A stretch of 62,061 bases of DNA. It comes from Syntrophomonadaceae bacterium. Lineage in GTDB: Bacteria > Bacillota > Syntrophomonadia > Syntrophomonadales > Syntrophomonadaceae. The stretch's first letter is position 1; the number at the start of each line of letters is the position of its first letter. Below are positions 10,575 through 47,638 of this stretch, one piece after another. The position numbers and the translations under genes were made by a program. The notes under the pieces were generated by a model. It had not been told where the DNA came from. It was given only the letters and a program-made list of their open reading frames with translations, and made no database searches. The stretch covers positions 1 through 62,061 of the forward strand of contig JAQUXM010000003.1 in the NCBI GenBank assembly GCA_028692415.1, written 5' to 3'.

Positions 10575-10787
10575 TTTTAATCACAAAATGAGCCAGAGCG
10601 ACCGAATCACCATGGCTCTGAAATTATCTTCTTTGGCATCGCTTGATGATTTCCGGGAACTAATGGAACTTCTTTGCGGTAAAGCTCCGGCCTGTACTCT
10701 TGATGAACAGAATATATTTCTTAAACATGCTTTGAATACCAAAAACTAGCAACAATATAGTAATTCCCAGACCGCAAGATATTGCTG
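10575..10787 (+). pseudogene. Decayed duplicate of the 3' part of an iron alcohol dehydrogenase
   Basis: About 213 bp are nearly identical to 18512-18726, inside the intact Fe-alcohol dehydrogenase gene 8 kb downstream. Matching peptide runs include NHKMSQSDRITMALKLSSLASLDDFRELM and CGKAPACT. The copy lacks a start and the N-terminal two thirds, and AAAAACTAG introduces a stop where the parent reads AAAAACATT. Scattered substitutions show it is not a recent assembly artefact. It is a partial segmental duplication or a recombination scar. Confidence 0.9.
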
Positions 10788-17645: not shown

Positions 17646-18752
17646 TTGACGTGGCAGGCACATTTTCCTACCAGAGTCTTTTTTGGACGGGGAGTAATAA
17701 ATGAGCAAGCAGACTTGCTGCATACACTTGGTTCCCGAGCCCTTATCGTAACTGGAAAGGGTGGTTCGGCTATTCGAAATGGAGCCCTGGAGGATGTTTG
17801 CAGGACCTTGGAGAAGACATCGCTTGGCTGGGAACTCTTTAATGAAGTTGAACCCAACCCAACGATTGAAACTGTTCGCAGGGGGGCTGCTTTGGCCCGA
17901 GAGATGAGGGCTGATTTTGTGATTGGAATTGGTGGCGGTTCTCCGATGGATGCTGCCAAAGCAATCGCTATTACTAATCTGGCGGAAGTCTCCGATGAAG
18001 AGTTGTTTAATCTGCAATACGGTGATGTTCTCCCGATTGTTTTAATACCTACTACGGCCGGTACAGGTTCGGAAGTAACCCCGGCATCCATATTGACAAG
18101 CCATAAAGACCAGACCAAAAGAAATATTGGCAGCGCAAAACTCATCCCCAACATTGCTTTTCTCGATTCATCCTATACCAGTGGTCTGCCCTGGCAAATA
18201 ACTGCAGATACCGCAGTAGATGCCTATTCTCATGCAATTGAAAGCTATTTGTCAGCGAAAAACAATGCTATAAGTTCTCTTTTCTCTGAGCAGGCGATGA
18301 CCATTCTGAGCCAAGAGCTTCGAGTAATTGCTCGAAAAAACGATCTTGGTCCTGATAACCGGGATTCTTTACTATATGCCTCCTACCTGGCGGGTGTTGC
18401 CATCAGCTTGACTGGCACCTCAATACCCCATGCACTCGGATATTCTTTAACCTATTACAAAGGGATGCCTCACGGGAGAGCAAACGGAGTTATTATGCCA
18501 TCATGGATGGATTTTAATCACAAAATGAGCCAGAGCGACCGAATCACCATGGCTCTGAAGTTATCTTCTTTGGCATCGCTTGATGATTTTCGGGAACTAA
18601 TGGAACTTCTCTGCGGTAAAGCTCCGGCCTGTACCGTTGATGAACAAAATATATTTTTAAAACATGCTTTAAATACCAAAAACATTAATAACAATATAGT
18701 CATTCCCAGACCGGAAGATATTGCTGAGATCCTTGCCAATTGTTTGAGTTGA
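17646..18752 (+). CDS. Iron-containing (group III) alcohol dehydrogenase
   Basis: A 368-residue protein of the Fe-ADH family. The NAD(P)-binding motif is GIGGGSPMDAAKAIA (about residues 95-109), then PTTAGTGSEVT and metal-ligand segments DAYSHAIESYLS and GTSIPHALGYSLTYYKGMPHG. These enzymes interconvert alcohols and aldehydes with a metal ion. The substrate cannot be read from sequence. Start is a TTG (17646) preceded by CGGAG. Its 3' part (18512-18726) has a decayed copy at 10575-10787. It is followed by a small membrane protein and an EFR1-type ferredoxin gene. Confidence 0.88.
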   Translation: MTWQAHFPTRVFFGRGVINEQADLLHTLGSRALIVTGKGGSAIRNGALEDVCRTLEKTSLGWELFNEVEPNPTIETVRRGAALAREMRADFVIGIGGGSPMDAAKAIAITNLAEVSDEELFNLQYGDVLPIVLIPTTAGTGSEVTPASILTSHKDQTKRNIGSAKLIPNIAFLDSSYTSGLPWQITADTAVDAYSHAIESYLSAKNNAISSLFSEQAMTILSQELRVIARKNDLGPDNRDSLLYASYLAGVAISLTGTSIPHALGYSLTYYKGMPHGRANGVIMPSWMDFNHKMSQSDRITMALKLSSLASLDDFRELMELLCGKAPACTVDEQNIFLKHALNTKNINNNIVIPRPEDIAEILANCLS

Positions 18753-20498: not shown

Positions 20499-20771
20499 AT
20501 GCCACAAATTAAACCAATAACCGAGTTGAGAAACACTAATGAAATTTCCGAAATATGCCATAAAAAAGGCGAGCCTATTTTTATTACTAAAAATGGATAT
20601 GGCGATTTAGTTATAATGAGTATAGAAACATATGAGCGTCAACTCGGTCTCGTTGATGTGTACAAAAAGCTAGCTGAAGCTGAAACACAAATTGCACAGG
20701 GTGTTCCTTTGTTGGAAGGTACAGAAGTATTTAAAAAACTGAGGGATAAATATGTCCGGGAAAAGATATAA
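20499..20771 (+). CDS. Phd/YefM-type antitoxin of a RelBE-like module
   Basis: A 90-residue protein with the Phd/YefM pattern: PITELRNTNEISEICHKKGEPIFITKNGYGDLVIMSIETYE. This fold binds DNA through its N-terminal half and neutralises a RelE/YoeB/ParE-type toxin with its C-terminal tail. CGAGGTGATGAT precedes the ATG. It overlaps the toxin start by 20 bp, the standard co-translated arrangement. Autoregulation is expected, but I found no operator. Confidence 0.85.
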   Translation: MPQIKPITELRNTNEISEICHKKGEPIFITKNGYGDLVIMSIETYERQLGLVDVYKKLAEAETQIAQGVPLLEGTEVFKKLRDKYVREKI

Positions 20772-21147
20772 ATTGAAGTTTACTCCCAAAGCAAGTGAGG
20801 ATTTAGAACAAATTTTTAGCTATATAACAGGATCGCTTATGGCTGAAATTGCTGCGGACAATTTGCTGGAAAAAATCGAAATTAGCATAATGCGACTAGA
20901 AAGTTTTCCTTATTCAGGTAGTTTTATTGTAGATGAGCCTCTAAAAAACAGGGGGTATCGCAAGTTAATAATTGGTAACTTAAGCATCGGAAGAAACTGC
21001 GAAGCAGTTTCAACACACCGCTGCAACGAGGCGGGGGACGTTTTTTCGCCTCGTTATATTGCTTTTTATTTAGTTAATGAGCAGGAAAAGCAGGTTGTAA
21101 TTATGCGTATTCTGTATGGTGCCCAAAACTATCAAGATATACTTTGA
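20752..21147 (+). CDS. RelE/ParE-type toxin carrying an in-frame 25-residue repeat insertion
   Basis: A 131-residue protein. Residues 1-76 (KRYKLKFTPKASEDLEQIFSYI ... GYRKLIIGN) and the C-terminal YIAFYLVNEQEKQVVIMRILYGAQNYQDIL are a normal RelE/ParE toxin, expected to be about 100-106 residues. Between the two halves sit 75 bp (20980-21054) of the dispersed repeat, encoding LSIGRNCEAVSTHRC and following residues. The insertion keeps frame and has no stop, so the gene remains open. It interrupts the junction before a conserved C-terminal beta strand, so toxin activity may be lost or altered. See the repeat entry at 20980. Confidence 0.85.
   Translation: MSGKRYKLKFTPKASEDLEQIFSYITGSLMAEIAADNLLEKIEISIMRLESFPYSGSFIVDEPLKNRGYRKLIIGNLSIGRNCEAVSTHRCNEAGDVFSPRYIAFYLVNEQEKQVVIMRILYGAQNYQDIL
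20980..21057 (+). repeat. Dispersed repeat R2, short form, inside the toxin gene
   Basis: It starts TTAAGCATCGGAAGAAACTG, has the GAAACTGC..GCAGTTTC hairpin, ACACCGCTGCAACGAGGCGG and ends TTCGCCTCGTTAT. The middle of the long form (GAACCCGCC ... CTTAAAGAAGC) is missing. About 75 bp, in frame within the relE-like gene. Confidence 0.9.
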
Positions 21148-25520: not shown

Positions 25521-25692
25521 TAAAAAAATTAGCACCTCTTAAGTAATTGCTCCAAGTAGTCTGTTTAGCTATGCTTGCCAAAGCTGCTTTTAAACAATCC
25601 CCATTACACTACCCAACCGAATAGCCTGGCTGTTTAAAATCCCTTCTCCCCTTTAACTTTGACCGCCTTTTTGTAATCTTCATGTTCATTTC

Positions 25693-25823
25693 TTAAGTAT
25701 CGGAAGAAACTGCGAAGCAGTATCAACACACCGCTGCAACGAGGCGGGGTTTTAAACCTCGCCTGTTTTGTTATTAGGACCCCGACCGTTTAAAGAAGCG
25801 GGGGCATCTTTTCACCTCGTTAT
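25693..25823 (+). repeat. Dispersed repeat R3, long form
   Basis: It starts TTAAGTATCGGAAGAAACTG, keeps the ACACCGCTGCAACGAGGCGG block, the middle CGCCTGTTTTGTTATTAGGA, CCGTTTAAAGAAGCGG and ends CACCTCGTTAT. About 131 bp. Its right part is read on the opposite strand as the tail of a small protein gene. Confidence 0.9.
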
Positions 25824-35205: not shown

Positions 35206-35282
35206 TTAAACATCGGAAGAAACTGCGGAGAGTTTCAACACACCGTTGCAACGAGACAGGGAACATTTTTTCGCCTCTTTAT
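35206..35282 (+). repeat. Dispersed repeat R6, short form
   Basis: It starts TTAAACATCGGAAGAAACTG, with GGAGAGTTTC, CACCGTTGCAACGAGACAGG, and ends TCGCCTCTTTAT. About 77 bp, 25 bp upstream of the mazE-like start codon. Confidence 0.85.
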
Positions 35283-47502: not shown

Positions 47503-47638
47503 TTAAGCATCGGCAGAAGCTGCAGAGCAGTATCTTCCGCACCGCTGCAGTGAGGCGGGAGCTTAGAACCCGCGCCTGTTTTATTAATAGGAACCCGACC
47601 GCTTAAAGAAGCGGAGGACATCTTTTCGCCTCGTTATA
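47503..47638 (+). repeat. Dispersed repeat R8, long form, between resB and nrfD
   Basis: It starts TTAAGCATCGGCAGAAGCTG, with AACCCGCGCCTGTTTTATTAA, CCGCTTAAAGAAGCGG, and ends TCGCCTCGTTATAA. It is transcribed inside the operon on the reverse strand and supplies the nrfD stop codon. Confidence 0.92.

What the first reader, a model, noticed from the sequence alone, without database searches (positions are those of the whole stretch)
20752..21147. Repeat inserted in frame inside a RelE-type toxin gene
The 75-bp short form (divisible by three, no stop) sits between the GYRKLIIGN and YIAFYLV segments, adding 25 residues and leaving the reading frame open. This resembles Rickettsia palindromic elements, which insert in frame in proteins. 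It may be tolerated, may inactivate the toxin, or may give the repeat a protein-coding life.
Basis: partly seen in the sequence, partly recalled or inferred. Interest (0 to 1): 0.9.

Follow-up and report, generated by a model that had tools for sequence, protein, structure and literature searches.

The report
Mobile repeat inside a bacterial toxin gene
A 75-base copy of a repeat that occurs more than 200 times in this genome has landed, without breaking the reading frame, in the middle of a small toxin gene; it is a real and clean insertion, but the only one of about 205 copies that sits inside a gene, so it looks like a tolerated accident rather than a way of building proteins.

Summary
Confirmed. 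Window 20980-21054 (75 bp) is a short copy of a repeat with at least 210 left ends in a 3.0-Mb genome of the family Syntrophomonadaceae. It lies in frame in a ParE/RelE-superfamily toxin gene (20752-21147) downstream of its Phd/YefM antitoxin gene. The closest homologue (genome G033, 78-87% identical) is contiguous across the site. All 13 aligned homologues lack the 25 residues. The repeat inserts at T^TATA without a target-site duplication: the toxin site and independent empty sites already hold TATA(A). The 133-bp full form has stops in all six frames. The 75-bp form, an internal deletion between GCGGGGGA repeats, is open in three or four frames and divisible by three. AlphaFold2 keeps the ParE fold and puts the insert in a low-confidence loop in the turn between two beta strands. 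Substitution counts do not suggest decay: 6 derived changes in the carrier against 13 in the insert-free homologue, dN/dS 0.23. The Rickettsia palindromic element analogy holds only for this locus: of 205 copies, 184 are intergenic, 20 touch gene ends, and only this one is spanned by a gene. Most likely it is a tolerated insertion in a dispensable toxin that still folds. Whether it is still toxic is untested.

The parts
20499..20771 (+). Antitoxin gene of the module, Phd/YefM family, 90 aa, overlapping the toxin start
   Evidence: PF02604 E 6e-9 over cut-off; TIGR01552 over cut-off
20752..21147 (+). ParE/RelE-superfamily toxin gene, 131 aa including the 25-residue insert
   Evidence: PF05016 E 2e-12; homologues of 106 aa
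20980..21054 (+). Inserted short-form repeat, 75 bp, read in frame as LSIGRNCEAVSTHRCNEAGDVFSPR; 72 of 75 bases equal the short-form consensus
20993..21011 (+). Hairpin 1 of the repeat (GAAACTGC GAA GCAGTTTC)
   Evidence: fold z -5.0; compensatory changes in full-length copies
21026..21054 (+). Hairpin 2 of the repeat (ACGAGGCG ... CGCCTCGT), reaching the right end of the element
21055..21058 (+). TATA target abutting the right end; already present in the empty site of the homologue
   Evidence: TATA after 125 of 161 right ends; G033 empty site GGTAATTATATTG
35206..35279 (+). Another short-form copy (74 bp), not within a predicted gene, followed by TATA
47503..47634 (+). Full-length copy for comparison, followed by TATA
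25692..25823 (+). Further full-length copy, not within a predicted gene

Best explanation
A 75-bp internally deleted copy of a high-copy, non-autonomous repeat inserted at a T^TATA target lying on the codon pair AAT|TAT of a ParE-type toxin gene. Insertion made no target-site duplication and added exactly 25 codons. The frame stayed open because the short form lost the stop-containing middle of the 133-bp element and has a length divisible by three. The added residues form a floppy loop in the turn between two beta strands. The toxin core should still fold. The insertion persisted because the toxin is dispensable or held by its antitoxin, or because the altered toxin is still active or only weakened. 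Shown: insertion, empty site, frame, uniqueness, absence of a decay signal. Inferred: fold and tolerance. Not known: toxicity, expression, and the enzyme that moves the repeat.
For: Empty homologous site on contiguous DNA at 87-93% identity on both sides. The 13 aligned homologues of about 106 aa, and the further full-length matches in other genomes, lack the residues. TATA follows 125 of 161 right ends and T precedes 153 of 172 left ends. Independent empty sites hold an intact TATA with no duplication (G015 filled, G024 empty: ACAGTGT^TATAAGCC; G037 filled, G036 empty). Tandem copies joined CTCGT|TTAAGC re-use the same TATA. The short form is open in frame; the full form has stops in all six frames. 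AlphaFold2: strands 69-74 and 102-109 retained, blocks 101-120 at pLDDT 92-94, insert residues 78-96 mostly below 50; the insert-free homologue has the same order of helices and strands; Foldseek finds ParE2 and other toxins of the superfamily. No acceleration in the carrier: 6 against 13 derived residues, dN/dS 0.23, no stop or frameshift.
Against: The insert sits close to the strand pair that carries the active site in RelE (own knowledge), so folding does not prove activity. The predicted mRNA hairpins (about -33 kcal/mol over 86 nt) could cut translation. The insertion may be too young for decay to show (3 of 75 bases differ from the consensus). Only one genome with the filled site is held, and it is a draft with 245 contigs.
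Confidence: 0.85

Rival explanations
1. The insertion inactivates or strongly weakens the toxin; the open frame is a coincidence of length and the gene is an early pseudogene kept beside its antitoxin.
For: Insert in the turn between two core strands; stable hairpins in the mRNA; NCBIfam score falls from 35.5 bits in the insert-free homologue to 27.1, below the cut-off; the copy is young, so decay would not show yet.
Against: No stop, no frameshift, fewer derived residues than the insert-free homologue; fold predicted intact.
Confidence: 0.4
2. The repeat is a Rickettsia-palindromic-element-like family that regularly inserts in frame into proteins and gives them new segments.
For: In-frame insertion here; the short form is open in several frames; some copies give C-terminal tails such as NEAKRCPPLL.
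Against: 1 of 205 classifiable copies spanned by a predicted gene, although about 67% of TTATA sites in the window lie in genes; the full form has stops in every frame; other spanning frames have no Pfam match.
Confidence: 0.04
3. The insert was selected: it tunes toxin strength, or its hairpins lower toxin translation relative to antitoxin.
For: Strong hairpins; no decay signal.
Against: No second lineage keeps it; no expression data; tolerance explains the same facts.
Confidence: 0.08
4. Assembly artefact: the short-read assembler joined flanks through a repeat copy.
For: Draft genome with over 200 repeat copies and 245 contigs.
Against: Both flanks match one contiguous gene in G033, in frame; the right junction has the expected TATA; the same short form occurs at about nine other places and in G024; copies differ by about 10%.
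Confidence: 0.03

Closest known systems
Rickettsia palindromic elements (RPE)
   Same: Small repeat with palindromic parts, inserted in frame in a gene and adding a peptide
   Different: RPEs sit in genes often: nearly half of 44 in R. conorii, as summarised in PMC10969869. Here it is 1 of 205. The full form here is closed in all frames and no sequence relation was found or tested.
Bacterial MITEs (review PMC10969869), which can make in-frame fusions
   Same: Non-coding, high copy, dispersed, presumably moved by an enzyme encoded elsewhere
   Different: Ends are not terminal inverted repeats (TTAAGC... / ...CTCGT) and there is no target-site duplication
IS200/IS605-type non-autonomous elements
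   Same: No target-site duplication, fixed tetranucleotide abutting one end, hairpins near both ends (analogy from own knowledge)
   Different: No Y1 transposase found in the host genome; hairpin 2 reaches the very end of the element
REP elements with RAYT transposases
   Same: Intergenic hairpin repeats; RAYTs are common in this bacterial family
   Different: Longer (133 bp); the repeats beside the RAYTs of relatives are a different sequence, GGGGACGTTCTTTTTGTT
ParE/RelE-superfamily toxins with Phd/YefM antitoxins
   Same: Fold, gene order, overlapping frames
   Different: 25 extra repeat-encoded residues in the turn between two core strands

Membership tests
ParE/RelE-superfamily type II toxin | Matches the family profile over its full length | tested here: met
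   PF05016, 47.8 bits against a cut-off of 23; RelE_StbE 27.1 against 27.9, just below
ParE/RelE-superfamily type II toxin | Adjacent cognate antitoxin gene | tested here: met
   PF02604 immediately upstream, overlapping
ParE/RelE-superfamily type II toxin | Toxic when expressed, neutralised by antitoxin | not testable with these tools
   needs an expression assay
Rickettsia palindromic elements | Many copies in frame inside genes | tested here: not met
   1 of 205
Rickettsia palindromic elements | Sequence relation to an RPE family | not tested
   no RPE sequence compared
MITE | Target-site duplication | tested here: not met
   toxin site and further empty sites; a 1-bp duplication cannot be excluded
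MITE | Terminal inverted repeats | tested here: not met
   consensus ends TTAAGCATCGG / CGCCTCGT are not complementary
IS200/IS605-derived element | No duplication and a fixed short target abutting one end | tested here: met
   TATA 125/161; empty sites
IS200/IS605-derived element | Y1 transposase available in the genome | tested here: not met
   no PF01797 match in G000, 92% complete
Rfam RNA family or tRNA-like | Match to a covariance model or tRNA finder | tested here: not met
   no Rfam family at gathering threshold; no tRNA

The most novel reading that the evidence does not exclude
The repeat-derived loop has been kept by selection because it changes the toxin (weaker, or differently matched to its antitoxin): a mobile repeat turned into a functional protein segment in a toxin-antitoxin pair.
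Probability: 0.08. Interest if true: 0.65.

Novelty: new member of a known kind. Interest (0 to 1): 0.38.

Why it matters
It is a clean natural example, with an empty homologous site, of a mobile repeat adding a peptide to a folded protein. It shows what makes that possible: an internally deleted, stop-free copy with a length divisible by three, at a TATA target in a turn, in a gene that can bear change. The census also shows how rare the outcome is. The repeat family itself (TATA-targeted, no duplication, over 200 copies, shared by several genera of Syntrophomonadaceae) was not found described in the literature searched, and its mobilising enzyme is unknown.

Tried and rejected
tRNA-like origin, because the antisense strand holds GGTTCTAATCC: ARAGORN and Rfam negative. 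Integron attC site: end boxes not complementary, judged by eye. RAYT/REP origin: no Y1 transposase in the genome, and the repeats beside RAYTs of relatives differ. A TTA target duplication: contradicted by the toxin site and by the tandem copies, which would each need an extra base. Other in-frame genes: ten spanning open frames had no Pfam match. Autonomous parent between distant ends in L140: the interior holds ordinary genes, no transposase recognised by eye. RNAalifold consensus on the alignment was poor, so a structure of my own was counted. Literature on Syntrophomonas repeats: nothing relevant.

Full report
Observation. The ORF at 20752-21147 encodes 131 residues and matches ParE_toxin PF05016 from end to end (E 2e-12). 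An overlapping upstream gene encodes a Phd/YefM antitoxin. Residues 77-101 are encoded by 75 bp (20980-21054) that match a dispersed repeat. The whole-genome search returned 44 DNA matches. Pattern searches with up to 3 mismatches gave 210 left ends and 123 right ends, and none for reversed control patterns. The genome is a 3.0-Mb draft, 245 contigs, 92% complete.

Empty site. In G033 the homologous toxin is 78% identical over residues 1-76 and 87% over 102-131, and the two parts abut. On the DNA, GGTAATTATATTG in G033 corresponds to GGTAAC-[75 bp]-TATATTG here. The T/C difference is synonymous (Asn). All 13 homologues in the alignment lack the residues, and about 25 further homologues from other Firmicutes match as one 106-residue stretch.

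The repeat. A profile built from 78 copies has a consensus of 133 bp. In the fetched stretches there are 218 distinct matches. TATA follows 125 of 161 right ends (TATT 18), and T precedes 153 of 172 left ends. Empty sites in relatives confirm insertion at T^TATA without duplication: G015 filled against G024 empty (ACAGTGT^TATAAGCC), and G037 filled against G036 empty. Two tandem pairs joined as CTCGT/TTAAGC fit re-use of the same TATA. Copies lie at a median of 89.5% identity to the consensus and no pair of full copies exceeds 95%, so amplification is not recent. The family is abundant in two genera (G000, G022; G035-G037) and sparse in at least five others. Hairpin 1 shows compensatory changes in six of its 13 pairs; this is modest support for a maintained hairpin, as the shuffles do not correct for relatedness.

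Short form. Ten copies are 73-76 bp. They fit a 57-bp deletion between two GCGGGGGA repeats inside the full form; the 75-bp copies also have a one-base-shorter hairpin arm (AACAC for TTCCGC). One 76-bp copy (L108) retains the TTCCG arm, which suggests that the deletion has happened more than once. Whether the toxin received the short form directly, or a full form that later shrank, cannot be told. The full form has stops in all six frames; the short form has none in four, one of which (antisense, third phase) would still meet a TAA made at the TATA junction. The copy in the toxin differs from the short consensus at 3 of 75 bases.

Uniqueness. With a simple codon-usage gene caller trained on 188 long ORFs, 205 copies could be classified: 184 intergenic, 20 overlapping a gene end, and one spanned by a gene, which is this toxin. 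In the window 67% of TTATA sites lie in genes, so gene insertions have been removed by selection. Ten other open frames that read through copies had no Pfam match. The family therefore does not behave like Rickettsia palindromic elements, of which nearly half in R. conorii lie in genes (as summarised in PMC10969869).

Effect on the protein. AlphaFold2 with 14 sequences gives mean pLDDT 78. Strands 69-74 and 102-109 flank the insert, whose residues 78-96 are mostly below 50. The insert-free homologue has the same order of helices and strands. Foldseek matches PaaA2-ParE2 and related complexes. So the core is predicted to fold with a disordered loop in a turn. In RelE this region is near the active site (own knowledge), so loss of activity is possible. 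Outside the insert, dN/dS to G033 is 0.23 and the carrier has fewer derived residues (6) than the insert-free homologue (13). There is no sign of decay, but the insertion may be young.

Conclusion. The best reading is a tolerated in-frame insertion in a dispensable toxin; loss of function is a live alternative (about 0.4 in my estimate, not exclusive of the insertion account). Expression and toxicity are open. The enzyme that moves the repeat is unknown: no Y1 transposase was found in this genome.

Noticed in passing
L178, L179, L177, L180, L190 (genomes G037, G035, G036, G033, G015), end of the 2-oxoacid:acceptor oxidoreductase gamma-type subunit gene (named by eye): A repeat copy lies at the same site at the C-terminus of this gene in five genomes of three genera; in the four whose frame was read it replaces the last residues with an element-encoded tail (NEVKICPPLL and variants). 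G024 has the site empty.
   Followed up: partly
L019:544-1425, L060:1-1533, L162:481-1440, L112:1736-2242 (own genome): Predicted genes that end inside an antisense copy: three with a tail of the type NEAKRCPPLL, one with TMRKNAPASLSGQSTINKTGSF.
   Followed up: partly
L158, L125, L034, L124, L132, L119, L114, L046, L009, L163 and others (own genome): At least 13 genes end exactly at a copy, the stop TAA being formed by TA of the target and the first A of the element, so insertion at a stop codon rebuilds it.
   Followed up: partly
L010:1494-1681, L024:1494-1682, L026:1494-1690, L050:1343-1525: Longer copies (182-197 bp) with an extra module of about 55 bp holding two small palindromes (TTCCCGAAGGGAA, GTCCCCGTAGGGG).
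   Followed up: no
window 10575-10746 and 18512-18683: Unrelated 172-bp direct repeat, 95% identical.
   Followed up: no
L090-L098: RAYT-type Y1 transposase genes in relatives flanked by GGGGACGTTCTTTTTGTT-like repeats, distinct from this family.
   Followed up: no
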